A stretch of DNA of 64,000 nucleotides. Origin: Poronia punctata. Its lineage: Eukaryota > Ascomycota > Sordariomycetes > Xylariales > Xylariaceae. Below are positions 9,258-53,720 of the stretch, one piece after another. Numbering within the stretch: the first letter of the stretch is position 1; each line of letters starts with the position of its first letter. The notes beneath the pieces are model-generated. The model was not told the DNA's origin, ran no database searches, and saw only the letters and a list, made by a program, of their open reading frames with translations. The stretch is taken from positions 1 through 64,000 of the forward strand of contig MU401482.1 of assembly GCA_022579005.1 (NCBI GenBank), given 5' to 3'. The translations under genes and the position numbers were made by a program.

Positions 9258-10619
9258 ATGGCCGACTACGATCTTCTGCCGAAGCTCTTACCCTACCTAG
9301 ACCGCCACCTCATTTTCCCACTTCTTGAGCACACTGCCAACCGTCTGCCGGAAGATGCCGACGATGCTGCTCTTCGGCCTATAACAAAGGCCAAGTTCGA
9401 GCTGCTGAAGACGACCAATATGATAGATTTCATCGGAAGCCTGCATGCCGAACTCGAAGGACTCGATAGCCCCCCTCAGGAATACGATCAGAAGCGCCAA
9501 AAGGTTATCCGACGCTTGGAGGAGCTTGACGAGAGCACCAAAAAACTTATCGATCTTTTTGGACGGGAGGATGTTGTTGGCAACCTGCGGAGCGACAAGG
9601 TCGCCAATTTGGAATTCCTTAAGAATGACCATGGTGTATGGGACCTACTTTTTTTCAATCTAGTTTTCACCCACCAAACGTCGGCCAGTACTGACTAGTA
9701 ACAGGTGACGCTTGAGATGGTGGACGCGCTCTACGACTTCGGAAACTTCCAGTACAGCTGCGGTAACTACGGTGCTGCTGCGGATCTTCTTTACCAGTTC
9801 CGTGTCCTCTCCACAGATAACGACAAGGTTGCCGCCGCAACCTGGGGAAAGCTTGCGTGCGAGATTCTGACGACAAACTGGGAGGGAAGCGTCGAAGAAC
9901 TTAACAAAGTCAAGGAATCTATCGACACAAAGCTGTTCAACAACCCGCTGGCCCAGCTGCAACAACGAACCTGGTTGATCCACTGGGGCCTTTTCCCCCT
10001 CTTCAACGACGACAAGGCTCGAGACCAACTCCTCGAACTGTTCTTCAGCCCCGCCTACATAAACACCATCCAGACCAGCAGCCCCTGGATCCTTCGCTAC
10101 CTGACGGCGTCCGTCATCACCGGCCGCAACCGCACCCGTAATTCCGGCCAGCATCAGAAGCAGCTCAAGGATGTCATCCGGATAGTCAAGCAAGAAGCCT
10201 ACGAGTACACTGACCCTATTACCGATTTTATTCGTGCTCTTTATGTCGACTTTGATTTTGAAGAAGCACAGCGACAACTGCTCCTAGCCGAGGAAATCTG
10301 CCGATCTGATTTCTTCCTCGTTGCCGCGGCCGATACCTTTGTCGACTGCGCCCGCCACCTCATCTCAGAAAGCTACTGCAAGATCCACGCGCGCATTGAC
10401 ATCAAGGATCTTAGCACGCGGCTAGGCCTTGGCCAGGACGAAGGAGAGAAGTGGATCGTCAACCTCATCCGAGACACCAGAGTGGACGCCAAGATTGACT
10501 ACAAGGAGGGAACCGTAGTCATGAACCACCCCCCTAGCTCTGTTTATCAGCAAGTTATCGAACGGACGAAGGGTGGTTTCTTCCGGACTCAAGTCTTGAG
10601 CGCTGCTGTAGGGCGTTAG
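9258..10619 (+). CDS. int6: Translation initiation factor eIF3 subunit e (Int6)
   Basis: This is a subunit of the eIF3 complex, which recruits mRNA to the 40S ribosome. Exons 9258-9635 and 9705-10619 give 430 residues, close to the usual fungal length. The 69-nt intron has a GTATGG donor, a CTGAC branch site and an ACAG acceptor. The N-terminal eIF3e domain begins [24 protein letters not shown]. The conserved stretch [20 protein letters not shown] follows the junction. A C-terminal PCI domain covers roughly residues 230-400 and includes [20 protein letters not shown]. The protein ends [13 protein letters not shown] at a TAG codon. The start ATG sits in CAACATGG, a good fungal context. After the stop the same frame stays open for another 39 codons (see findings). 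Confidence 0.95.
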
Positions 10620-11453: not shown

Positions 11454-12698
11454 TCATTCATCATAATCAGCAGCAATAAACGCCCCCTCAGGCGGTATCA
11501 AGGATTCCGGCCTACCCTTTGGAGGCTGTCTAACGGCATTTTCGGCCACGAATTGTTTTATAGCGTCGTAGTTGCCGCATGTATGCATTCGTTTGTTTTC
11601 CCCTGTTAACTTTCCCGTGTCGCCTATCCAGATGAAGGGGACTGTGTGTTTTTTGGGGGGATATTGTTAGTTAGGTGGTTTAAAATCGTGAGGGAGGGGA
11701 GGGGACAAGGGACAGTGGAAGGAGAGGGAAAATAAAAGGGGGGTGGGGAAAGGGAAAAGGGAAAAGGGGAGAGAGGAGAGGGGAGTAAAGTAAGTAAGTA
11801 AATAAGTACCTATGCCCAAGTCGGCTGTACATGCTATACGATGACGGATGATTTCCAAGCAGTGATCTGTTTATTTTTTTTTAAAAAAAAAAGTCTCTGG
11901 ATTAGTAGGTATTTTCATATATTGGGGAGTTTGATGACAAAAGAAAAAAAACTAGGTTTAAGTTTAGGTTTAGGTTTAGGTATCTTTACCTATATGCATA
12001 ATATCCCAGCCTTCCAACTCGGCCGGCACACACGTAGGCGGCTTACAAGTGTCGCGGGAATGTTGCACATTGTAATAGAGATTCTTGCGCAACAGGTTGA
12101 CGCAATGCATCTGATGGACTGCCTCGGGTAAGACTGGATATCCGACCATGTTCAGATCGGGTCTGTCTATGTACGCGTGACGAGAGGGGTCGATGTCTGC
12201 TTTTTGGGCTTCGGATTTGGGGATCATTATGAAGCCTTTGTCTGTTTTTTTATTAGTCTGGCTGAAAGAAAAGTAGGGAGGAGGGGGAGGGGAGGGGAAG
12301 GGGAAAGGGAAGGGGGAAAAAGTACCGGCTTGTTCGTAATCAGCCCAGATGTCATCTGCTTTTGTAGAATTGTGTTGACGCCATGGGGTTTCTTCGAGGT
12401 CGTCAGGGTAGAATGTTACGTTTATTAGTTGGGGAGATGTTGTTGCTAGGTGGGATAGGGTTGGTGTTATTCCTTTGGGGGGTGTGTTTACGCATCTGGA
12501 GGGTTTGGATTTTGTTGATGGGAGGAGGAATAGGAGGATTATCGTGATGATATTGGTGATGGTGAGGATTGAGATGGTGATTATGGAGGAATAGGAAGTA
12601 GTTCGTTTTCTAGGGGGTTCTTCGTGATATTGTTGTTGTTGTTGTTGTTCTTCCTTGGGGAGAAGCCCTTCTGTGTCTTCTGGTGATGGACTCCTCAT
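11454..12698 (-). CDS. UstYa-like (DUF3328) oxidase, first of a divergent pair
   Basis: UstYa-type membrane proteins oxidise or cross-link side chains, often Tyr, in ribosomal cyclic peptides. I join 12698-12326, 12241-11990, 11866-11810 and 11641-11454 on the minus strand (289 residues), all introns phase 1. The first intron is a multiple of three without stops and so is masked as open frame. A poly-Gln run (18-23) precedes one membrane helix (about 37-60). The two diagnostic motifs are HQMHC at 167-171 and HIDHC at 207-211; the second is created by splicing between exons 2 and 3. The C-terminal VPFIWIGDTG and HTCGNYDAIKQF match the family tail. The gene faces away from a second HxxHC gene and lies 2.2 kb from a Lys-Arg-repeat precursor. 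An alternative role is cyclisation in another secondary pathway. Confidence 0.87.
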
Positions 12699-13200
12699 TG
12701 TTTATTCATTGATATCTGCACCGGAAGGGACTGGGGAAACTTGTCTTGAAGCTTAGTCCAGAGAAGAAAACTCTAGTGTTGAAACTGATATTGAGCTGTT
12801 TGGAAGGCGGGTATATTATTAACCCGTTACGTGATATTACATTATCTATGCGATCATGGAAAGAGCTTGATATCTCGTCAGATCTTAGTTCGTCTCCATA
12901 CCCAGGCCGGAGTTGCGGGTTACAGGATTCAGGATTCGTGGGCACATGGTATCTCTCAACTTCCACCTTCCTAATTTTGTTACCTTTCCCACTCCCCTGG
13001 GAAACCTTAAAGCAGCGCGTGGGGGGAGGAAGGTATATGATATGGTAACCATGATAGGCGACTTACACGACTTATTCGGACGTTTGGATTTCATCATATG
13101 GAGTTTCCGAGACATGGCGATGACGGGATACTAGACTAGCTATAATCGTGGACTTTTGACTTTCCCTCTTCTCCCTTCAGCGAACAACATAAACATCGAG
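12699..13200. promoter_or_regulatory. Shared divergent promoter of the two UstYa-type genes
   Basis: The two HxxHC genes start 502 bp apart in opposite directions, so this segment should carry both promoters and may co-regulate them. I did not identify a specific regulator-binding site. The inference rests on gene arrangement only. Confidence 0.5.
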
Positions 13201-13897
13201 ATGAAAAGCGATATTGCATATGAGCCACTACCCGGTGGAAGACCACCAACGAAGAAATGGAATACGCTATCCTTCACCGTCGGCTGCACAACTTCGCTCG
13301 TCATAGGCATCGTCTTTCTCTTCATTCACAGCGCTGTGTCGACTCCTAAGACGACAGAAGAGATAGAAGCGGAAGATTGGAACTACTGCGGGCGCTCTAG
13401 CGAAGCTGCTAGGGAGCGCGGTTGTGTCATGGAACCCATGTTCTACGGCTGGATGCCAGCAAAGTGCGTATTTCGCGAGCTTACCGATTCTCTGCCAGTG
13501 TTCGAGGACCGCACTTATTACAGAGATCTGAATATGACGGAGAAGCTGCGGCCGGAACAGCTTTGGGCGGGAGAGTATAATATTGTTTATACGCCAAAGT
13601 AAGAAAACCGAGGGTTGTTACTCTCCTTGAGGAGCTTCCCTTCTTTACTTTGAGCCGCTTGGATTGATCTCGGCTGATATTTGTGTTTCAAGGTATCATG
13701 ATGAGCATTGCTTGTTCCAGTGGAGGAAACTCCAATATGCAATGACTAACAGGATGGACTTCGTCGACAATAAGACGATGAGTATGCACCACACTACTCA
13801 TTGTGCGGACCAGCTTTCGGAGAGCTGCGAGCCCGAGACGGGAGGGAGAGCTACTATCGAGATTGGCTTTTACCGGTGCCGGAAGACGATCTGGTGA
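13201..13897 (+). CDS. UstYa-related membrane protein with two HxxHC motifs
   Basis: Exons 13201-13598 and 13693-13897 give 200 residues; the donor is GTAAGA, the acceptor TTTCAAG, and the junction splits a Lys codon. One membrane helix spans about 22-45. A fungal-specific block CGRSSEAARERGCVMEPMF follows. After splicing there are two HxxHC motifs, HDEHC at 135-139 and HTTHC at 166-170, with the same spacing logic as UstYa proteins, where these residues are thought to bind metal. The first motif is supplied at the very start of exon 2. The sequence is divergent from the neighbour on the minus strand, so they are not a recent duplicate. I infer a second modifying enzyme of the adjacent peptide pathway. 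It could instead be a partner subunit. Start chosen at the first ATG in frame. Confidence 0.8.
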
Positions 13898-14882
13898 TGG
13901 AAATGACAGATGCCTCCTTTAGGTTAGAAGTGTCGCTTTCCTGGCTTTTGCCGGGACAGACCTCAGTGTAGTAGTACCATGGTGCTCGAGATAGTAAACT
14001 AGAAAAGCCAGCGTTATTGATTTCATACTCAACCTTTTCGCTTCCTGTAGACGAGATGAAAAACCATCCGAACCAAGCTCTAATATCAGGCTCAGTCATT
14101 GCGTGCAGTACTTCCGCTCCTTCCTCGCCACTTTTACCATGGCTTGGATCACGTCGGCGATAGAACTTATTGACCCCGCCAATTCAACAAGCCGTGTGGG
14201 CATCTTCGCATCCCCGGCTCCGCCTCAGTCTCCGACTCGGCGTTTGATACTGATTTATCATCATGACAATCGAGCAGGATTTCGGCGCATACCTAACCCA
14301 TATGGCATAGCCAAAACTCACATGTCCGCTCTATCCCATCTCCACGGAGATTTTCCCCATCGAGGTCGATAACCGCCTACACCATGTAGGGCCTATCTCG
14401 AAGGATTCGGTGAATGCTTACTTTGGAACTCTTGGCAGCGTGTGTACACTCTGTTAAACCAATCATCCATGCGGAGAAGTTGGAATGACGAGTATTGAAG
14501 CATATCATGCCGCTTTAACATGCCCATGCCCACGTGACGAGGCCAGAATGCTGGTGAGGAGAGCAGTTACTCGTATATTCGAAACCATGGGACCTCATCG
14601 ATCGGGGTGAGACACCATATGCTTCCCCACAGGTGAATGGATGAGGGAGTGTAGACATGGGAATGATGTGGGGGTCAGAATCGAATCTCGATGGCCTCAT
14701 TGCTTTCGGGCACCTGGTTATTCCTAGGTATATAATGAGCTATCGTCAGTCTGTGTTCGCAACCAAGTAACTATGGGTTACGATCGCTGCCCTGTTCGTC
14801 TAGAGAAAGCATTCGGAGTAAAATATACCTACTTATATATTGTACAAAATACACACCTATCACACAGGGAAACAGAGAAATC
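13898..14882. other. Intergenic region upstream of the peptide precursor
   Basis: No intact gene is visible. On the minus strand near 13860-14190 some short segments look weakly protein-like but are broken by stops in every frame, which could be a decayed gene. The downstream part holds the precursor promoter, including TATATAAT at 14729-14736. Confidence 0.45.
14729..14736 (+). promoter_or_regulatory. Possible TATA element for the peptide precursor
   Basis: TATATAAT lies about 150 bp before the precursor ATG at 14883. The position is plausible for a fungal core promoter. It is a single match in AT-leaning DNA, so confidence is low. Confidence 0.3.
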
Positions 14883-15317
14883 ATGAAGACATACCTCTTT
14901 TTCGCTACTATGGCCCTAGGCGTCCTAGCCGCGCCCCTCGTCGGTACGTTGTTCAAGTGGCTTTGGTGGGCGTGACTGTTTAATAAGGTATAAGCTAACT
15001 GTATTCCCATAGTCGACGACGCAAAGCGCCAGTTCGTAGGAACATATGTCCCTGCCGGGGCCGAGGGGGAGGCCGCTGAAAAGCGCCAGTTCGTAGGAAC
15101 GTATGTTCCCGCAGGGGATGAAGGTGAAGCTGCAGAGAAGCGCCAGTTTGTAGGAACGTACGTTCCGGCAGGTGAAGAAGGAGAGGCTGCTGAAAAACGC
15201 CAGTTCGTGGGAACATACGTCCCTGCCGGGGATGAAGGGGAAGCTGCAGAGAAGCGCCAGTTTGTAGGAACATATGTCCCCGCAGGCGATGAAGGCGAGG
15301 CACCGGTGAAGAACTAG
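14883..15317 (+). CDS. Secreted Lys-Arg repeat precursor (candidate RiPP)
   Basis: Exons 14883-14943 and 15013-15317 give 121 residues; the intron (GTACGT...CATAG) follows the signal sequence. Residues 1-17 form a typical signal peptide, MKTYLFFATMALGVLAA. Five copies of a 19-residue unit follow, each opened by Lys-Arg at 25-26, 44-45, 63-64, 82-83 and 101-102. Each unit has an invariant QFVGTYVPAG core and an acidic spacer of the type DEGEAAE. Only the first spacer position (A, D or E) varies, apart from the altered tail of the last copy. Codons for the identical cores differ silently, so the peptide is under selection. Kexin would release 17-residue peptides starting with Gln, which may become pyroglutamate. 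A conserved Tyr is available for UstYa chemistry. Alternatives are a secreted signalling peptide or a wall peptide; it does not look like a Cys-containing mating pheromone. Confidence 0.88.
15021..15308 (+). repeat. Five tandem 57-bp coding repeats
   Basis: The unit is 19 codons and begins AAGCGCCAGTTCGT or a silent variant. The copies differ mostly at third codon positions. The array encodes the Lys-Arg-flanked peptides of the precursor; the last copy ends in a diverged tail before the TAG at 15315-15317. Confidence 0.9.
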
Positions 15318-16233: not shown

Positions 16234-19200
16234 CTATAACCTTCCAATGTCCGAGTCCTCCACAGCTTCCTTGAAGCCGGTGATGATCCTGATGAGATCG
16301 GACTCATGGGACGAGCCGCCCGTCCAAGAAACGTGTTTGAAGCCGACGTTTTGCATGCAATCACCCCAGTACTCGGGACTAGCAAGTACGTAAGGGCGGC
16401 CATCGTTAAACATCCACCATCCGTCTAGCAGGCCGAAGACCAGGTCAAACCAGTAGAGTCGTTCTGTGAATTCGACAACGGAGACAAAACCATTGGGCTG
16501 CAGGAGTTTGCCAATATTCTTGAGCGAGTTATTCAAGTCTCTTGTCGCATGAATGCAATTCGTCGAGATGACAACGTCGAACTGTCCGTGGAGCTCCAGT
16601 GGTGGTTCGTTCTCGATGTTCAAGGTGGTGTACTTCATACAGTCGAATCTCGAGAACTTTCGCTTTCCCCCGGCAACCAGCGCTGCCGAGATATCCGTAA
16701 AGGTGTACTCGACGGGTATCCCAAGTGTTGCCAACCCCTCTACTACCCATTTCGTCGTGGCGCCGGTCCCGCCTCCTATCTCGAGGATGCGGAACTTCTT
16801 ACCCGGAGGCTTTGGGGTTGAGTTACTCAAGAACTTCACTAGGAAATTTGTGAGAAGCTGTGATGTGGTCATGTACGAAGGACTAGTGCTGTAAAATTTC
16901 TCTAGAATATCGCGATTTGCCTTGGTCCCGAAGAGATGATTGACAGGATCTTTTGAACCCGTCATGAGGTCGGCCAGATTCGATCCGCAAAGATGAAGAA
17001 GCCGGTGGTCGTGAGCAAATTGGGGTGCATTTCGCAACAGCTCTTCGAGGAGAACTCCAGATGGCGTGCCATCCACAGGCACCTCAGAGCGACGATAGCG
17101 AGACCCGTCGCGGTCTGCGACCTTTCCTTGTTGTAGGATCTCATAGAGCGAATCGCGTAGGCGGTCATGCCTGGGTAATGTTGGAAGCAGGGAAATCTCG
17201 TCGCCTGGGTTGAGGTTCGCGAGATGTACACCCATGTCCGCAAATGCCTCGACAGTATACGCAAGTACTAGGCGCGATTCCCTCTCAAAGACATCGGCAT
17301 AATAGTTGGAAAAGCGGTGGGATGACGCTAGCTTGTCAAACTCGCTCTTGATGGACTCGAAGAGTTTGAGAGCGTTCCCGGAAGTGGAATCTCGGTGAAG
17401 AAGACCGCCATGGACATCAATATCGGTAGTCTCAGCAACTGGCGTCAGCAGTGGCGACATTGAAGTCGCAGAGGTAGGCGGACTGTCGCTATAAGTTGCC
17501 AGACCTGGCGAGACTGCGTCAAGCACTATATCTGTCAGATGTCCATAGGTACTGTCCATTGTGAGTAGGGACAGGTCGACATAAACGCCAAACTCCTTCC
17601 TAATGTCACTGACAACCTCCATGCAGAGAAGCGAATCCAGTCCGCGTTCTGCCAAGTTGGTTGAGCGGTCAAAGTCGGACGCTGGGCATTCTAAATGGCT
17701 CGCAAGCAAGCTGGCAAGGCGTGATAAAATGTCGCTGTGCTCTTGTGGCCTTGCGTATACCACTTGAGATGCTTGTCCTACAACTGATTCATCCACGATG
17801 CCAGTCGACAAAAGTTTGGGTAAGTTGGGTGTTGATGCCGGTACAACCTGCTTCGTCAAGCTTTCCGGCTTCTGCAGATTAAACTGCGATGTGATATAAC
17901 GACAAAACGAAGGGGCATCCTGAAGACCGACCAGTTGATCCGACGGTATGGATATGCCGAATTGTGCGTTAACCTCTGAAACCACTTCGTTCACCATTAA
18001 GGAATCGATGCCGAGGTCTGCGAGTGTCACGTCTTCCGCGAAGCACTCTGACGGCACATCGGTGACTCGACTCAGCAGCTTTCGTACTTCCTCTTCGATG
18101 CCGGAATCTCCGCGATTGTCTACGGGGTCCACAGTTGGAACGGGTGTCGGACTAGGACTAGGACGACCATTATTTACCGACTGTTTGGTCACCCTGCTAG
18201 GCTTGGGGGCATGGACTTGTGGTGTAGCCGTGGTTAGTCGTGCCGGCGTATCTTCTGGATAGAGCGCCGTGCTATTTGGGGTAGTATGGTTCGACTCGAA
18301 TAGCACCTTCGCCAGCGAGCTGGTTCTGATTCTGTTGAATCGTGCGCCGAAGGCTACAAACACGAGCCTCGAAGTATTGGCGTCTCGGGCAAATATGTCT
18401 GCATGGACCTCTTTATCACCGACACTGGATGTTGTGGTCCAGACTTTCCATTCTCCACACCCTCGACCTTGCTCTTCTCGTCCGGGGTCCACAATGATGC
18501 TATCAACCTGTGTGCACACATAAATCTCATCTGGAGGACATGGTGCAAGGCAGTTTTGATATATGCTCGCTATTTGGAAGAAGTTGTCGATTGCAACAGG
18601 GTGGGTGAAGAATCCCTTTAGACGCGGTGGCTGAGGATCTGGCAGTGCGACTTGGCCTACGACTGTGTTATCATCCGCAGCTATGTGGCGAACGCCTCTG
18701 TAAAAGTCTTGATAGCTAACAACTTTGGAGAAGACATTGTAGATCACAGACCCGTGCATGGCCTCGGCGCTGCGGTCTAAGGTGACTTCGTCGGTTCTCT
18801 GATACTTCAGGAGTCTATCGATTCGGCTCATCTCAACATCAAGGCTGGTATCATGCTGAGCGACAATCTCGAATTCTCCGGTCGCGTGTACGGTAGGTTC
18901 CTCCAAGTTCTTGCTTTGATCTCGAAGCTCAGAGCTAAAGGCAAACTCCCATCTGAGACCGGCTTGGTCTAGCTGCCTGAACACCAGTTTAACGCTTTTA
19001 TCGTCAGCGAGTCCCACAGATGAGATGATTTTCAGGTCGCCAAGTCGCCCACGGACACCCAAAGGCATGTCCTTGGCGGCTGAAATATGGCGCCCAGCCT
19101 GGTAGACAAGCTCCACATATAGAGATGCCGGACATAACGGTTGTTGCAATACTGCGTGACCCTCGACGAGTGTCCGCCACTCTTCACTACGCGGGTCGAC

Positions 19201-22067
19201 GACGAAAATTGCCCGGTGACAGGCAGGAGACACGGTCTGCAGACCGGAAAAGCTGAGGAGCACCGGCTCAACTAATTTCTCCGTTGCCGGAACCAGCGAG
19301 CTTTCGGAATCGGCTGGTATGTCATATTTGAAGTCTAGCCAATGGCTTATTCTCTCGAACTGGTATGGAGGTAGGTTCGACGCTTGGTAGATCTGCCTAT
19401 CGGACCGGTGGAATGGCCAGAACTGTACATGGTGACCCTCCTTCCATAAATTTGCCGTTACGGCGGCCAGGCTGTTCAATCCATCATGCCTGGTCAGTTT
19501 AACAGAGTAAAGGGCATGTCTCGGATCGTCAGAGACGCAGCGGCGTACAATGTCGGTGACAGAGGTAAGTGAACCAGCCTCTACCCAGGTGCAAGGTCCG
19601 TGCAGTTCATCGATTCGCTTTATCGCATCATTGAAGAAGACGGCGTCCCGGGTGTGGTTGACTATCATCTGAGCAGATGGTGTAGTCTCGAATTCGGTTG
19701 TCATCTCAAGTGGTATCTTTGGCGAGCGGTACTGTAAGGACTGTGCTAATCTTTCGAGTCCAGGTAGGATCGGTTCGCAGAGCCTTGAGTGAAAACCGTG
19801 TGTCACATCCAGTACCTTGTATCTGGTCGCTGGGTTCCCTTTCAGAATACCCACTGCCATGTCAACTTCTGCCGCGGATCCAACAAGTACATGACTATTC
19901 GGACCATTATAACAGGCAATTTCCAGCCGAGAAGCAGGGTTGATTCTCTTGACGGACGACATGAGGCCCAAAGTGGTCGACAGGTCAGAGCTGACAGCCA
20001 ACATGGATCCATTTTCGCTGGCCCATGCCGTCTTCATGAGCATGGCGCGGCCGTAAACGAGCCGGAGTCCATCGTGAAGAGAGAGAACGCCCGATACGGT
20101 AAGCGCGACCAGTTGGCCGAAAGAGTGGCCGACTAGGCGATCGACTTTCAAGCCACATTCAATCCAAGACCGGGCACAAGCATATTGCAGAGAGAACTGT
20201 GCGGTGTGCAGTAGGGCAACATCCTCCTGGGGGGCAGTACTGAAAATGCCGGGGAAGATGCCAGGTTGGCCCCATCCCTTTACGATTGTGTCGCATTCTT
20301 GAAGATGCCTCTGGAGCAGTGTAGAGCCATCGTACACGGATCGACTCAGGCCTACAGAACGGCTTCCTTGTCCACCGAAGACTAGTACAACTGGTCTCGT
20401 GCTTGAGGGGGCGTCGAGAGCGGGAGCGGGGGCTGCGAGGACCCGGTCCAACTCTGCCAAGTCAGAAGCTGTGGCCACTAATTTCTGGGGGAGTTTTCTG
20501 TTTTGCCTTTCGCTCAGGCCGTATGCGATGTCCGCCAGCGTCAAGGATGGCGACGCTTTGACGTGGAGCCGGAGCTTTTTGCAGTTATCAGCGAGGCTCT
20601 GCGGGCTGTTTCCAGTCAGAACTAGCGGGTATGCAGACAACAACTTTCCAGTCGTCGGCCGTGTCGATGGTAGGAAACCTGCTTCTCCCACCAACAAGGC
20701 CGCAATACTACCGGCAGCGCCATAGTTGTTGACACACGCCAAGCGGTTCTCTCCCGGCCATGGTGTCGTGGTAGTCGGTATCCGCCACTGCGCCGCGTCC
20801 ATTTCGATTTTGGGGTTCAGCTTGTGGAAACCCACTTGGCGAGGGATAGCTTTGTGCTGCAGCATCAGGAGAACTTTAATCAATCCAGCCACGCCGGATG
20901 CTCCCTCCGCATGACCGATATTTCCCTTGACCGATGATATGTATAGAGGTGTTTGGCGTCGCGGACCACAGAAGACATCCTTTATCGCATCGATTTCGCG
21001 AGGATCACCTACAGGCGTTCCGGAGCCGTGAGCTGTTTTAATGCAGGTTAGCTTGTGGACACCGAGTATTTGAGCAGGGGACAACTCGAATGAAAAGACG
21101 AGTCAACTATACCTTCTAGGTAGGACACTTCCTCGGGAGCGACGCCAGCGAGATCTAAAACCTTGCGGTATAAGCTGGCGTGGGAGCCGCTGTGTGGCAC
21201 CGTGATGGGAACTTTGTTGCTACTCTGCTTGACAGCGGTCGAGAGAATAGTACCGAGGATATTGTCGCCGTCCTCTACCGCCTTGGAGAGTTTCTTCAAG
21301 ACGACCAAGCCAACACCTTCGCCACGGCAGTACCCGTCCGCACCTTGATCAAAGGGCTTAGTAGGACCCGTCTGACTGAGGAATGAAGCTTGCGCCAGAT
21401 TCTGGTATAGATGAGGGCTTGTGAAGACGGAGACGCCGCCGGCAATGGCGCTCGTGCAGTCACCCTGTAAGATGGCCTTGCAGGCTGCATCTATGGCCAC
21501 AGCGGACGAGGAACAGGCAGTGTCATACGTTATAGACGGGCCAGTGAAACCGAAAAAGTGACTGATCCTGCCGGTAAGAAATGCCCGCAAGGTGCTCAGT
21601 GCGGAAAAGGCATTAGGCGGATGGCTGGCCACATTGTCGTTGTAGTCTGACCCGATCAGGCCAACAAAACAGCCCACTTCGGTGTCTGGCTCGTTTTGTT
21701 GCGGCCGAAAGAAAGCAGCCGACTCGAGGGCTTGATAGGCGACTTCTAGGAGGAGTCTTTGTTGCGGGTCCATTGTGGCTGCCTCCCTGCTCGACACCTT
21801 GAAAAAGCGGTTATCGAAGTCGGATACGTTATTCAAGAAGTTACCAGAGAAGATAGACTTGTCATTGCTCCGTTTGTGAGTGTGGGTGGGGAACCGCTCC
21901 GGGGGAGGCTCGGAGGCCATTGACCTGCCCGACTCTAGAAGATGCCAGAATTCCTCTACTGAGTCAGCTCCTGGGAATTTACAACCCATGCCGATTATGG
22001 CGATGGCCTTGTCCGTGTCCAGTGGCGGGCCGTTACGCCCGTGGCGCTCACTGCTGCTTTCCCTCAT
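16234..22067 (-). CDS. Non-reducing polyketide synthase KS-AT-PT-ACP-ACP-CMeT
   Basis: This iterative type I PKS would make a C-methylated aromatic polyketide. Exons 22067-21113 and 21032-16234 give 1917 residues; the 80-nt intron restores the KS motif AHGSGTPVGDP. Visible domains and residues: KS with Cys185 in DTACSSSA and the later GNIGHAEGASG; AT with GHSFG (Ser about 622); product-template domain with His about 944 in EGHAVLQQPLCPASLY and Asp about 1134 in HPVAIDNFFQ; two acyl carriers, LGIDSLM (Ser about 1329) and RGLDSLL (Ser about 1452); C-methyltransferase with ILEIGGGTGATTKW near 1734. It ends with the methyltransferase: no thioesterase or reductase. Only about 20 residues precede the KS, so there is no SAT domain. 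An in-frame ATG at 22115 would add 16 residues. A TATATATATATA tract at 22254-22270 lies upstream. Confidence 0.92.
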
Positions 22068-22115
22068 TGGATGATGATGGGCAATTGAGAATTCGACAAA
22101 AAGGTTGAATGTCAA

Positions 22116-25100
22116 AATCGGAAAGAATAACGAGAATAAACGCGTGGAATCGATCCCCCTGTTGAATGGGGAAGACTTCGCCTTCTGTTTTGTTGCGTTG
22201 GGAAACTCGGGAGAACGACGACACGGTCGGTGCAGTACCCGGCTCCCATTTCAATATATATATATATATCATTCTCCCGTCGTGTGGAGCAGATACCATG
22301 GCCGGAATGAGTCTCTACACATCACTGGAAAGAGAGGCCCAGACCAGCTCCCCTGTCCCCTGTGACCAACTTGGCCCCGTCCCTGCAAGACCGGCTTTAA
22401 TCTCGCCGACTTCCTCCTCCGGAATACTACGAAGGCTTTATTCCTTTGCAAGGGTTGGTACTATATCAATGGCCAGGACGATTTCCAAAGAATCCACGGC
22501 ATGACATTACGCCGTTCTTGTAAACAACGTTCGAACTCGGAGTATTCCCAACAGCGAAGCAGCAGACGGAAAAGGGGGAAAGGGAACAATATGATAAGAC
22601 AGACCCACATCCGCCACCTCTCCCCTAGGGAAATATTGGAGAAAGTTAAGTTATGGCCAACTCGGGCCTGTCTACCTGAACCGCGCATTACCTACCCTTC
22701 CGGTGCTTCTGCAATGGTTTCAAGTCTATTCGAAAGAGGTAGATGTGTCAACATCACGGATAAGGACCCAGCCTGATGATGAATGCTACATAACATGATC
22801 TACTACCAGCTACTTCATTTATCACCTCTGCTTATAGGCTAGTAGTGAAACTCAGCTCCTCATCAGCAAGTGGCGATTTGGGTCCGGCGGTAGGGTCATT
22901 GAACGAATTCTATGACTCGTCTTCCGAGATATGTATTGTCACTTCGGTACTGATGCGCAACAAATTTCCCACCACTTCCTGCGTCCAGGTTGGGTTTGTC
23001 TGGCACAACAAGACAGTCACCAAGTTTGACTTTCCGTTCTCTTGGACGGTTGGGCATTTCGGGAATCGTACCTCTATACCGTGTTGCGTATCGCGGGTAT
23101 CTCTCCTTTGAGCACTTCACCTGTTGAACGGGGATGGTGCAGCAAGTCAAACATCCGGGTAGCTCGCGATGGCCGTAAACGTGGTTGCTTGAGCAGCCCT
23201 TCACCTAAAAGCTCGCTCTCCGGCGCCATGGATACGGATTGGTTGTTGAATAATTCAAAGGCTACGGTTGCATTCACCTCCAGCTCATTTTTCCTTTGCA
23301 AGGATACAGGGTACACTCCCACCATTGCCTCCAGTCGGCCACTCCAGTGGAATCTACACCTTTGGGCACTGGTGTCATGGGCTAAGATTGCTCTTCGCTG
23401 TATGAATGGTTGTTTCCTACCTAACAGGTTGGGCGATCGTTGCATCGAGGCCCAACTAAGCTTTTCTCCCGCCAATCCATGTCCAAGCGACGAGATATGC
23501 ACATGTGACATGGACGACTATAGCAATTATTATGGAGAATACGCTGGCTACATTATCGCCTACGCAGACACGGGATGCGAAATGCTACGGTAGGAATGCG
23601 GATTAATTATGATACGCAAATCTGGTCTATATGATACGAAACCCGTGGTCAAACGAATCTTTCCTTAGTGGCAGGCATATTCTGTCCGACATCTCCGAAC
23701 GAGTTACCTAGTTAGTTGAAGACCTTTTTAAGGAAATAGGCCAATGTCTTTCCCGAAACCCCAGAACAGGCAGCGGTTAGGTAACATTGCATCTGTAGCT
23801 GAAAAGATGCGAATGTGGGTGGTTGTGGGATTATACGGCATGGGTCCATGGGATGATTGGCTGCGATGGCTGTCTGGGTTCGGTATCTGGGGTAGGCTGA
23901 GTAACAGTAGTAGGCTATAAGGCTTCGAATCCCACCCTACCTACCTACTATAGTAGGGCGGTTAGCGGACGCCGGGATCGATCCGGCGCGGCGGCCGGGA
24001 CTCGATAGCGCCCTGGGGGAAGCGCGGCAATGCCACAATCGAGGGCCACCCCAGTCCGAGCACGGAACTTGGGAAGCACAGATCATCCTAAAATAATTCG
24101 TCATGCTGGAGGTTCTTGCCCGGAAGAGGCAGAGTTGCAAATAATCAACATAGGCAAGGAGAAAGAAGAAGAAAAGAGAAGACGGGCCGAGTTGCAATAG
24201 GAGCAAACAGCAAGCCAAAGGTTGCAATGTTGCAATGTTGCATCGCAGCGGTGGGGTAACGTTATAGCCCTACAAACCTGCACCGATCGTCAACGCAAGT
24301 TCATGCCTGCTTACTTTGGCCAGCGTCGCTGACAAACGATTACGGTCCGGCCTTGTCATGATTTTGGAGTAGGTAAGGGCACTTACTTTTATTAGCCCCA
24401 TCATCCATTATCCATACTTTCAGATATGCATAGTACCAAGCCTTGATGTAACTGTGTTACCACATCTCTGTTACTGCAACCCCGCTGGCACTTGCAAGGA
24501 AGACTGTTGTTACCTCAAGTGACCTTACGAGGTACATGTGTAGGCTAATCGATGTCTATAGGTAAGGTAGGCTTTCCGTGTTTTCATCTTACATCAGCAG
24601 GAAATCTTGTCTCGACGTCAACTCACATTCCTCTATGTAGGTAGTCAATCGCTCCGGGCAGGCTGCAGGTGCGAAGGACTAAAGAAATACAGGGCAGTCG
24701 TACCGCGTTTCATTTATCCGCGCTATACAGGGGGGGAAGGCCAGGTTTGGTCCATGTTCCAAATACCTATGTCTTTTTCTTATGAAATTACAGGCCTGCG
24801 TTTACTTGTACTCGTACGTGGATCCGGCCCCGCTCGAAGGACGGAGGAACGACGGGCACTATTTATTCCCATACCCGGCATATCTCTGTCTACCATCCTC
24901 GTCGCAACACATGATTCATGAATATAAGGGGAATCCGCAAGATAGGCAACTATTCGTGTCAGGAGGGTTCGGAGCCAATTGAAACGGCTACTCTTAACAA
25001 ATCGACGCTGTGTGTGGCATTGTCCTCGCATCTATCCCCGGCATCTTAAAGTATCTGCCCGCATGACAGACAGAATTCAGGAAGTGGAGTCGATCTACCT

Positions 25101-36479: not shown

Positions 36480-39400
36480 CTAATCGTCGTCTTCCACTGA
36501 TCCGTCACCGTCAAACACTTCCAACTCTTGAATGGCATTCTCGAATCGAAGTCCCATGTTTCGCGCAGCCACGGCCCGGATGAATTTCGCGTCCGGCCTC
36601 GTCCCGGCGTACATCTCCGGAGTCAGAAGTGCCGGAGGAGACAGCTTGCCGCCGCTCGTCGCGATGCTTTTCAGGTATGCTAGTTGGTAGCCGGCAATGT
36701 ACCAGGGGAAGGACTTGTTGTAGTACATCTTGAAGCAGTACGAGGCTTTGAGTAGATCCCATTGGGACAAGCCCACCTTGGCGAGGCCGTCCTCGCGGAG
36801 TGATCGGAGCGTGTTGGAGTTCACCTTGTCTGTTGGTAAGATGTTCTGCCACTTCTCGTGTATGACTGCGACCTTTGTCTCAAAGCTCATCTTGTTGTTG
36901 CCCGCTGACATATCCCATTCTTTGCCAACGGCGTCTATGCGCTGCTTCAGATCGTCCAAGATGGTCTCCCACGTGTTCTTTGCACGTCTCCCTTCCAGTT
37001 CGTCCTTTTTGCGCTTTTCTAATGGTCGTTTCAAGTTTTCGAAATGCTCGATAAACTTGACCAGATCCCGATCGTATTTTTCGGCATGTTTGAGGTCCTC
37101 GGTAAGATCCTTTAGTCCATGTTCGACAGTCGGCTTGCCCACGACAAACTTGACGTAGTCGATGATGTGGGTTGGTTTCGTGTTTAATCCCCAGTTCTGT
37201 TTTTTATATTCGGGTTGGGGCGGGTCTGCTCGCGCCTTGCCCAACTTGCCGTCTCCTTGCATGGGGTTAAAAAGGTTTCTTCGAAGCTCGGTCCAGGCCT
37301 CCTCGGTGAAGACGGTGCCCTGCTTCGCTCGGTCAACCAATTGACTAATCAGTGTACTCAGGTAGATGGCCTGCCAATCGCTGACACACTTCCTCGAGTA
37401 GCAAAGCTTCTCTTTGTAGTTGGTACATGCGCCCAGGAGACTCTTTTCCATGTTGAAACGAAAGGCCAGGTCGAGGAACTCGGTGGTAACGTCCGGTGCC
37501 CATTCGGCGAGCCCACTGTACGTATCACTCTTCTTGCTCAGTACCTTTTGCGTGAAGAGGTCCGGCACTGGGGGAGGATCGGCATTTTTAAAGTTTTGTA
37601 CTATGGTAGGCTCCCAGCACACCCAAGCAATATCGCCATCGTAGTCGCCGCCTGAAAGTTTGTCTGCGAGTGGGACGAGGCCTTTCCTCGGGAATATAAT
37701 GACGTCTTTCAGCGACCCGAGTTCAGGCTTGAACACGGCCTTGACCCGCTGTATGTCACTCGGATAGTGGGCGGGCGTTCGTGCTACCAGCACGTCGATG
37801 CCGTGGAGAAAGGTTTCGGAAAAGCCGGATCTCTCGTCTGTAAACTTGGAAGAGAAGCCAAAGTGAATCTCGTCTTCCTCCAAGACGCCGAGGAAGTCGA
37901 TAGTCATGTATGCGTAAGTCGACCGTCCGACCCGAACATTCAGCTTCTCCTCCAGTTCGTCGCATTTTGCCTTGCGCATATCGTAAGCAATCTTTCTTAG
38001 GAATTCTAGTTTCTTCGGATCGAAACCGTGGGACAAGAGAAACTCCATCTGGTCCTCTTTGCTGTTCGGAAGACCCCCGTTCCAGGGCACATGACCAAGC
38101 CTGATGCGGTCCTGGCGACGTGCCGGGGCACCATTTTCATATACCCACAGTTTGAACTGCGCAGCGTCTTTCATTGCCTCCTTTTGAGCTTCCATTTCGG
38201 CCTCGAGACTTTCTCTCATGAACCTGCCCACCTCCTCCCTCATCACCGCCCGATTGATCGCACGGTCTTCGAGGATAGGAAGTAACTGGAGATTCAACGT
38301 AGCTGATCGGAGTTCCTTTGATTCTTTGAGTACTTCGAATGTGCGCTGATCTTCTTCTTCATAGTCGCATTTCCACTTTCTCTGAGACGGATAGGTTTCG
38401 ATCCATATATCGTCGCTTCTATCCTCGGTATCTCGAAGCCAGAAACCCTTGGCACTGCCAAATCGGCCTTGGAATCCGGCTGGCGTGTCATCGAGGCCCA
38501 TCACATCGCGGATCCGACGAGCGAGCGCAGTTGACATGCGGGCTATGCCGTCGTTCATCTCCTTGCCGGCCGGGGATAAGATGTCTTGATCATGGTGACG
38601 AATTTGCTCCGGCATCAGGACCACGGTCGGACGTGTGCGACTAAGCCCTGCAATACCAATTAATACGAAGTCGAGGCATAAGAGGCCGAGGGGACAATTT
38701 ACCCAAGGATATGCGCGAAAAGAGCTTGCATACGGTCTGTTCCTGATTCTTTCTGTGCTTTTTGATCTGCAAGAGCCAGTTTAGGAGCTCTGCCCGTTCC
38801 ATTTTCGTGTGTCTGTGGGTGGGTTCCTGTGGTGGTGATACTGTCGTCATCCTGTCCGTCGGGCCAAAGTCATTTCCATTCTCGGCAAAAAAGTAGATTC
38901 TCTCCTGAAATATTGTCACGACTTCAGGCACAAGAGTATTATCTTTATGGATTTTCTTTGGCGCACCATCTTTTGTGAAGAATGACTTCCACACACGACC
39001 CAAGAAGATGTGGCAATCTCGAGCCAGCCAGCTGTGAATAGCATCTATGCCGTTATCGTATGTTTTCTTGATACCCTGCACGTCCCGCGAGTGCATCGAC
39101 GGAATTAGAAGTTCAAGAAAGCGGTCAGAACCAAACCGCCGATCTAGCCTGTGTGGAAGGTCCAACTTTAAGGGTTGGAGACGGAGGTTGAATAGAGGCC
39201 CGACCGCGGATGGATTGACGGTCAAGGACGCCGTGAGTGTAACGATTTGATCGAGAGAGCAGAAGCGGTCGCTCATCGCTGCATTCCAAGCTTCCGGTTT
39301 CGGCTTCTCGGGGAACACTTTGCCCTCAAAGATATCAAGCCGTCGAAGCCTGTCCCAGAGAATGCTGTGATTATTGAAGGCGGGTTCATACACGAATGCA

Positions 39401-47381: not shown

Positions 47382-47447
<66 letters not shown>

Positions 47448-52214: not shown

Positions 52215-53720
52215 CTAGGCATAAGTGTAACAGAATGGCCCGTCAACAACACTGACCAACTCCTTGATCTTGTACTTGTCCTTTGCGACTGAACCTAGTT
52301 CTACTATATCATCCAGAGTTGCGTCCGCACCTCCGCCAAACATTGAACGTCCGCCCTACATATCCAGAGTTAGACGTATGTGACCGGACAAGAGGTACAA
52401 AGATGTTGTGGTAGACTCCGACTTACCGAAATGACTTGCTGTCGATTCTCGAGGTCCTGGATCTGCCATGTCGTCCAAGTGCGGTCAATCATTGCATGAT
52501 GCAAGACTGTTTGTAACATGCCACTATTAGCAAGAGAAAGACAAAGCCCGGAAAGGATAGAGTAAAGACGTACAGAAAGCCGGGTCGCCGGGAGAGGTGA
52601 AGAAATCACCGCCCGGATCTCCCGAGATGGTAAAGTGACCACCTCCATGGACACCCATGCCGCCGTTAGTAGTCGCCTGCATCGTGTCCTGGAAGCTCCT
52701 GATGTCACTTGTACCGCTGATGAGGCTCACGATGTCTTCGGTGCGCGTGTATCGTGACGACAGGTAGTTCGAGATGTCGCGTCGCAGGCACCGCGGGTTA
52801 TATCCGAAACCGTCGCTTTGGGGGTTGGATGGCGGTGCCGGTGAGATGACTGAGCTTACTGGGCTGGTATTGTTCGAGCAGGTTAGTTACCAATTTCCTT
52901 CCTTTCCCTCTAATCCTACTTGGGCTTGCACACTACTCACCCGAGGTTGACCGTGAAGCTGTGGCGCATGTAATTAGTCCTCATCTCTGTACTCGTAGAC
53001 GGTAGGGACGGCTTACTTCTTGAATGGTCCTTCTTGGACACATCCGCCGCCGTTGCCTGGGGGAGACACGGTCGAATTGTGATCGATATACTCGCCGTTG
53101 CCGCTCATGCTGGTGTCGCTTCCGTCAAAGATGGGAGAGCTCTCGGGATCGTCTGCCCATCTTCCCCAGTCCCAGTACGGCTGCGTGCCATTATAACCGC
53201 ACTCGTTTCGGAGCACCTGTTCGTAGGCCCACGTGTAGTATCGGTGCCATGATAGAAAGTTTCCCTGCTACCGGTTAGGAAATCGACCTGGCTAAGCGGA
53301 AAGTCGGGGGAGGCGTGCTGTGCCGTGAATACTCAAGGTTTGGTTCATGTGTTCGGCCACAAAGTCGTCGTAGCGCGTCTTGGCTCCCGGGATCTTCTCC
53401 GGATCCAGCTTCGATGGCGAGTTGGTGACGCACAAGACGGCCTTGATATACGCTTTTCTTTCTGCCGCACTCAGATCGCCCCTATGAAGGAGGGATGCTC
53501 TCTTAGCAAGTAAAATACGGGTGTGTGCCTCGAGGCGGGCCACTTACCATTCCCGTCGGACTTGTAGTTTGTCTTTGGTACATGTCGTCGACTTGGCTAG
53601 TTGGGCTTCTAGCGCTGGGTTCCCTTGATCCCAGAGATCCGACACCGCATCACCGTAAACGGAGGCGGCAAGCAAGAGTAAGTTGAGGAACAGCATCACA
53701 AATCCCTTAGCGCCCGCCAT
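52215..53720 (-). CDS. Secreted tyrosinase-family copper oxidase
   Basis: This is a type-3 copper protein that would oxidise phenols or catechols. I join 53720-53548, 53481-53319, 53264-53017, 52958-52941, 52863-52574, 52506-52427 and 52355-52215 (370 residues). A signal peptide covers about 1-23 (MLFLNLLLLAASVYG). Copper A histidines are H102, H110 and H119 in IHGTGNFLSWHRYY. Copper B histidines are H273, H277 and H300 in GVHGGGHF and AFFLHHAMIDRTW. Two oddities: intron 2 starts with GC rather than GT, and exon 4 is only 18 nt. Frame and motifs both require these choices. The protein stops soon after copper B, so it lacks the long C-terminal shielding domain of classical melanin tyrosinases. 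Confidence 0.87.

What the first reader, a model, noticed from the sequence alone, without database searches (positions are those of the whole stretch)
11454..15317. Candidate new dikaritin-like RiPP cluster
Seen: two divergently transcribed genes encode proteins with one membrane helix and two HxxHC motifs each. Within 1 kb lies a small gene for a signal-peptide protein with five Lys-Arg-flanked repeats of QFVGTYVPAG. Known: fungal dikaritin pathways (ustiloxin, phomopsin and asperipin types) combine exactly a kexin-processed repeat precursor with UstYa-type oxidases. Inferred: the cluster makes a Tyr-linked cyclic or modified peptide. I do not recognise this core from any described product.
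Basis: partly seen in the sequence, partly recalled or inferred. Interest (0 to 1): 0.9.

Follow-up and report, generated by a model that had tools for sequence, protein, structure and literature searches.

The report
Fungal Kex2-repeat cyclic-peptide gene cluster
A dung-dwelling fungus carries a three-gene cassette that very probably makes a small modified peptide of the ustiloxin kind; the cassette's type is known, but I found no description of its peptide or of the family of one of its two helper proteins.

Summary
The window matches Poronia punctata. A signal-peptide precursor with five Kex2-flanked QFVGTYVPAG copies (14883-15317, one intron) lies beside two divergent single-helix genes, each with two HxxHC motifs: A (11454-12698, minus) and B (13201-13897, plus). 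A is a clear UstYa (134.9 bits); B misses the Pfam UstYa cut-off (14.6 against 25). All 10 distinct core substitutions are synonymous. Nemania abortiva has a related precursor with one identical core.

The five B-type genes I found, at four loci, all lie beside a UstYa gene and a repeat precursor.

Most likely a dikaritin-like RiPP cluster: Kex2 frees the units, and copper enzyme A, perhaps with B, oxidises the Tyr-[Val/Ile] core. The chemistry is inferred. Such clusters are common (22% of KEPs, PMC7329392; 8 of 13 examined UstYa contigs here). New are the core and the Pfam-invisible B-type family.

The parts
11454..12698 (-). Gene A, UstYa (DUF3328/PF11807) protein, 289 aa; exons 12326-12698, 11990-12241, 11810-11866, 11454-11641; one N-terminal membrane helix, HxxHC(x)35HxxHC
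   Evidence: splicing; PF11807 134.9 bits (cut-off 25); 100% identity to P0061; His and Cys of both motifs invariant in 11 of 11 aligned sequences
13201..13897 (+). Gene B, B-type HxxHC protein, 200 aa; exons 13201-13598 and 13693-13897; one membrane helix, CG...A...C...W.P..C block, then HxxHC(x)26HxxHC
   Evidence: 100% identity to P0002; PF11807 only 14.6 bits; both motifs invariant in 20 of 20 aligned sequences; model pLDDT 81.2 with each motif on a helix
12699..13200 (.). Shared divergent promoter region between A and B
   Evidence: no exact motif of 8 bases or more common to it, the precursor promoter and the two C66 counterparts
14883..15317 (+). Precursor gene (Kex2-processed repeat protein), 121 aa: signal peptide, then five units QFVGTYVPAG-[A/D/E]EGEA..; intron 14944-15012
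   Evidence: no Poronia protein among the hits, so it is apparently unannotated
15030..15059 (+). Core copy 1 QFVGTYVPAG
15087..15116 (+). Core copy 2
15144..15173 (+). Core copy 3
15201..15230 (+). Core copy 4
15258..15287 (+). Core copy 5 (unit ends EAPVKN, no Lys-Arg)

Best explanation
A three-gene dikaritin-like RiPP cassette. Shown by sequence: a repeat precursor with signal peptide and Lys-Arg sites, a bona fide UstYa (A), and a second single-pass HxxHC protein (B), found together as a unit at two places in this genome. Inferred from named families: the precursor enters the secretory route; Kex2 cuts after Lys-Arg and gives five QFVGTYVPAG-xEGEA.. peptides; in a secretory-pathway lumen A, a binuclear copper enzyme like CctR, activates a C-H bond of the core with O2. 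I think the likeliest outcome is an oxidative link from the constant Tyr6 to a neighbouring beta-branched residue (Val7 or Thr5; in sister cores Ile at 7 and Ile or Ser at 5), followed by trimming of the acidic tail. B, which I found only beside UstYa genes in this genome, most likely acts with A, as a second oxidase, a partner subunit, or a copper/electron donor. Confidence 0.85 for a modified-peptide cluster using A; about 0.5 for a Tyr link; about 0.5 for direct action of B on the same peptide.
For: Gene models and motifs. Purifying selection on the core. Second cassette on C66: A (-), B (+) and a precursor with a shared 10-residue register: QFVGTYVPAG / NFDGIYIGPS / QINNIYIVPG / SNQCSYIVPG (the last is the first C66 unit, not preceded by Lys-Arg), Tyr at position 6 and Val/Ile at 7 in 4 of 4, then xEG[E/D]; aligned by eye. 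The 5 B-type genes found by four whole-genome queries lie at 4 loci, each with a UstYa match and a repeat precursor. A and B homologues share contig length in 7 of 15 A rows; their distances correlate over 6 pairs, r 0.85, 9 of 720 permutations as high. One place with a Kex2-type P domain in the genome. HxxHC(x)nHxxHC is a binuclear copper site in CctR (PMC12435403, parts 1-2 of 3 read).
Against: No expression or product data. I saw no tyrosinase, methyltransferase, peptidase or transporter gene in 11454-15317; the nearest tyrosinase match is 37 kb away. The core Tyr is internal, and position +2 (Pro in the window, Gly in Nemania) is not the Ile used in ustiloxin and phomopsin. The C66 precursor was not found by sequence search with the window's precursor (E<=1), so their kinship rests on position and a short register. 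B is not demonstrably UstYa: Pfam misses it, the first profile comparison gave probability 0.6%, a wider one 41%. Mirror correlation is confounded with species kinship.
Confidence: 0.8

Rival explanations
1. The precursor gives linear, unmodified secreted peptides (pheromone- or hormone-like), and A and B work on something else.
For: Most KEPs lack UstYa neighbours: 6120 of 7878 in PMC7329392 (section 7). No product data here.
Against: KEP and UstYa lie within about 3 kb of each other at all 8 contigs where I found a KEP; I looked for KEPs only around UstYa genes and in this window. Pheromone KEPs, with three exceptions, have no UstYa neighbours (PMC7329392 abstract). The A-B-KEP order is repeated at C66.
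Confidence: 0.1
2. The genes belong to a larger cluster with the adjacent non-reducing polyketide synthase (frames 16234-22250, minus), and A/B oxidise a polyketide or a peptide-polyketide hybrid.
For: The 3' end of the PKS frame lies 0.9 kb beyond the precursor. DUF3328 genes also occur in polyketide clusters (PMC12048977 section 22).
Against: At the second cassette (C66) 7 larger flanking frames were scanned: 3 hit Pfam, as an FtsH/M41 protease and a bicarbonate-type transporter, none as PKS (smaller frames not scanned). So far only the three genes are shared.
Confidence: 0.06
3. B is unrelated to UstYa; its two HxxHC motifs are convergent metal sites with some other secretory-pathway role.
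For: 0 of 20 B-family members reach the Pfam UstYa cut-off and only 1 shows it at E<=1; hhalign 0.6% with narrow profiles; B carries a Cys/Trp block (C63 G64 A70 C75 W84 P86 C89) not among the invariant columns of A.
Against: With wider profiles hhalign aligns both motifs in register, E 0.00028, probability 41%; among 9191 reading frames of held loci the best non-B match of the B profile is a UstYa frame, E 0.00085; same topology.
Confidence: 0.25

Closest known systems
Dikaritins (ustiloxin, phomopsin, asperipin-2a pathways)
   Same: Signal-peptide repeat precursor with Kex2 sites and UstYa gene(s) nearby (definition in PMC10512285, passages); Tyr in the core; Tyr-[Val/Ile] resembles the YVIPID of phomopsin (sequence quoted in PMC7099791, passages).
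   Different: Tyr is internal (position 6 of 10), no tyrosinase or methyltransferase seen in the cassette, second HxxHC gene is of the B type and not a Pfam UstYa, core found in no paper.
Epichloecyclin (gig) cluster of Epichloe
   Same: Small cluster: repeat precursor, one DUF3328 gene and one hypothetical protein of unknown function (PMC7317419 passages). That hypothetical protein could be B-type; not tested.
   Different: The gig cluster has its own kexin gene; 27-residue repeats.
CctR, cyclochlorotine hydroxylase (DUF3328)
   Same: A and B share one membrane helix and HxxHC(x)nHxxHC, shown in CctR to be needed for activity and assigned as the copper site (PMC12435403).
   Different: CctR acts on a non-ribosomal peptide as a homodimer; here two different HxxHC proteins are encoded as a pair. 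The CctR authors posit an unknown accessory protein that delivers Cu(I) or electrons, a role open to B.
KEPs with DUF3328 neighbours (Umemura 2020)
   Same: This arrangement: 1758 of 7878 KEPs (PMC7329392).
   Different: As far as the sections I read show (abstract, part 1 of section 4, section 7), neighbours were named by HMM profiles, so B-type partners without a Pfam model would not have been counted; Xylaria, Nemania, Poronia, Rosellinia and Eutypa are not named in its main text (supplements not seen).

Membership tests
Dikaritin precursor (KEP) | ER signal peptide | tested here: met
   Hydrophobic N-terminus MKTYLFFATMALGVLAAP, Kyte-Doolittle 1.99; no dedicated signal predictor was available
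Dikaritin precursor (KEP) | Repeated units bounded by Kex2 sites (Lys-Arg) | tested here: met
   Five units, 57-bp period, five Lys-Arg sites; last unit ends KN
Dikaritin cluster | UstYa/DUF3328 gene beside the precursor | tested here: met
   Gene A, PF11807 134.9 bits against cut-off 25
Dikaritin product | Core cyclised by UstYa-type oxidase | not testable with these tools
   Tyr is present in each core of the window, Nemania and C66 precursors; no chemistry available
Ustiloxin/phomopsin subgroup | Tyrosinase in the cluster | tested here: not met
   Nearest tyrosinase match 52575-53378, 37 kb from the precursor; so not filed in this subgroup
Ustiloxin/phomopsin subgroup | N-terminal Tyr linked to internal Ile | tested here: not met
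   Core starts with Gln after Lys-Arg; Tyr at position 6; no Ile in QFVGTYVPAG
UstYa Pfam family (gene B) | PF11807 above curated cut-off | tested here: not met
   14.6 bits against 25; 1 of 20 aligned members shows it at E<=1
DUF3328 superfamily in the wide sense (gene B) | Single membrane helix and HxxHC(x)nHxxHC | tested here: met
   motifs invariant in 20 of 20
DUF3328 superfamily in the wide sense (gene B) | Homology to UstYa | tested here: inconclusive
   hhalign 0.6% and 41%, E 0.00028; A model too poor to compare (pLDDT 43.5)

The most novel reading that the evidence does not exclude
B founds a second, Pfam-invisible family of HxxHC copper proteins that is a dedicated partner of UstYa in Kex2-repeat RiPP clusters. 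It works as a heteromeric subunit or as the Cu(I)/electron donor that the CctR study postulates, and so defines a new dikaritin subclass; in the C29/C66/Nemania branch the cores have an internal Tyr.
Probability: 0.35. Interest if true: 0.75.

Novelty: new variant of a known kind. Interest (0 to 1): 0.5.

Why it matters
Only five dikaritins were counted as reported in a 2022 review (PMC10512285, passages), though their clusters are common. Here is a small three-gene cassette with a core conserved between two genera, easy to test. If B-type proteins are obligate partners, they might help explain the hindrances to heterologous production which that review mentions, and they would give genome miners a marker that Pfam-based surveys miss: the five B-type genes found here all sit beside a KEP and a UstYa gene.

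Tried and rejected

No random-region control for KEP density could be fetched; I rely on the published average of 5.25 KEPs per ascomycete strain (PMC7329392).
Full report
WHAT IS THERE. Two genes of the window equal public Poronia punctata proteins over their full length (100%), so the source is this xylariaceous fungus (coprophilous, from recall); its assembly (45.05 Mb, 573 contigs) is held as G000 and the window is the start of contig C29. The precursor at 14883-15317 has one short intron and encodes a signal peptide and five units QFVGTYVPAG-xEGEA.., with Lys-Arg before each. No Poronia protein came up for it at E<=0.001 (1 hit among the 8000 candidates scored), so it is apparently unannotated. 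The ten distinct substitutions among the five cores are all third-position and synonymous; random placement gave at most 7 of 10 in 20000 draws. The linker does change residues (4 of 15 distinct substitutions, same call).

GENE A is a textbook UstYa: PF11807 134.9 bits, His and Cys of HxxHC(x)35HxxHC invariant in 11 of 11 aligned sequences. GENE B is different: 200 aa, one helix, CG..A..C..W.P..C block, then HxxHC(x)26HxxHC, all invariant in 20 of 20 aligned sequences (20 of the 59 found). Pfam gives it 14.6 bits for UstYa, below the cut-off of 25; 59 of 59 rows carry no precomputed Pfam domain, whereas 14 of 15 rows for A carry PF11807. Profile comparison of B and A gave 0.6% with narrow alignments and 41%, E 0.00028, with wider ones, both motifs in register; among 9191 reading frames of held loci, the best non-B match of the wider B profile is a UstYa frame, E 0.00085. 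I read B as a remote branch of the DUF3328 superfamily, likely but unproven. B's predicted structure (pLDDT 81.2) puts each motif on a helix, as described for CctR (PMC12435403). No solved structure matches A's profile by sequence at E<=1.

IS THE ASSOCIATION REAL? Gene B has a paralogue on C66, and so has A, again divergent. 1.5 kb past that B lies a second precursor, missed by a simple frame scan because introns interrupt the repeats; tandem repeat search exposed it. Its inferred protein is 88 aa with units QINNIYIVPG-EEGDAP. It was not found by sequence search with the window's precursor. Aligned by eye on the acidic tail, the four different cores (two from C66, one of them the first, incomplete unit; one from Nemania; one from the window) all have Tyr at position 6 and Val or Ile at 7. 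Nemania abortiva's precursor (94 aa) mixes two NFDGIYIGPS-bearing units with one identical QFVGTYVPAG.

Searching the whole genome with B, with its Trichoderma relative P0026, and with two distant B-type proteins found five B-type genes at four loci: C29, C66, C44 (two) and C350; one further weak match on C14 (E 0.0097, to an acidic stretch of the query outside the motifs) I do not count. All four loci hold a UstYa match and a repeat precursor. C44 and C350 cores contain Trp and no Tyr (VPWKEGV, VPWNAVG). I met the C44 and C350 proteins while examining UstYa loci, but searches scanned the whole genome and added no locus elsewhere. These searches score only best candidates, so more distant members may be missed.

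HOW ORDINARY IS IT? PF11807 gives 27 matches on 15 contigs. Their repeats are listed under noticed items; C117 has mostly single Arg, not Lys-Arg. The automatic scan also flagged frames on L023, L025 (two), L029, L031 and L034 that I dropped by eye as Arg-rich, low-complexity or antisense. So the genome is rich in such clusters, and Umemura counted 1758 of 7878 KEPs with DUF3328 neighbours (PMC7329392, section 7). The kind is known.

CONSERVATION ELSEWHERE. Two of the seven are verified directly (C29, C66); for the rest equal contig length is my inference of linkage. Eight A rows, including a second A of strain FL0594 (P0062), and 52 of 59 B rows have no such partner listed, which may reflect search sensitivity or real absence. 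Distances of A and B correlate over six pairs (r 0.85; 9 of 720 permutations), and both matrices put the C66-type Poronia gene closest to FL0594; species kinship confounds this.

MECHANISM. Shown in print: DUF3328 enzyme CctR binds two copper ions per monomer, loses activity when HxxHC(x)nHxxHC is mutated, uses O2, needs electrons, and is membrane-anchored with a lumenal domain as proposed there (PMC12435403). Ustiloxin and phomopsin form a Tyr-Ile link through enzymes like UstYa/UstYb, asperipin links internal Tyr (PMC9233826 passages). Inferred: A oxidises the QFVGTYVPAG core; because Tyr6 and the beta-branched residue at 7 are the constant pair, I expect a Tyr link to residue 7 or 5 rather than the +2 residue used by ustiloxin. 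B acts with A; whether as second oxidase, subunit or copper/electron donor is open. A Kex2-type P domain is found at one place. No tyrosinase lies in the cassette.

VERDICT. A real, selected, dikaritin-like cassette with an undescribed core and a Pfam-invisible partner family. New variant of a known kind.

Noticed in passing
16234-22250 (-): Non-reducing polyketide synthase frames (KS, AT, PT-like, two ACP, C-methyltransferase at the end), 3' end 0.9 kb from the precursor.
   Followed up: partly
52575-53378 (-): Tyrosinase-domain gene, best tyrosinase match in the genome search, 37 kb from the precursor.
   Followed up: no
L018 1653-2095 (C66:97653-98095, +): Repeat precursor whose tandem repeat (period 124 bp) includes an intron: intron and unit were duplicated together.
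   Followed up: yes
C44 (L020 57-839, L019), C350 (L038 7173-7907, L039): Trp-bearing KEPs (GEAIVPWKEGVQER; SGDAVPWNAVGSEKR) beside UstYa matches and distant B-type open frames of 279-387 residues.
   Followed up: partly
C37 (L024 1686-2234), C197 (L033 626-919), C5 (L034 7919-8599), C117 (L025 7543-8262): Four more repeat precursors near UstYa genes: CNAPKCAKDTAYAIIKR, VQVSEGFRR, DAAYREGAWGKR, and about 17 copies of AVDQDAAKFYDR-like units with mostly single Arg.
   Followed up: partly
36480-38780 (-): RNA-dependent RNA polymerase (PF05183), some kilobases from an AT-rich, repeat-laden block at about 26.4-32 kb.
   Followed up: no
47382-47445: Run of 64 C, possibly an assembly artefact.
   Followed up: no
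9702-10619 (+): eIF3e gene (PF21357, PCI) next to the cassette: housekeeping neighbour on the left.
   Followed up: no
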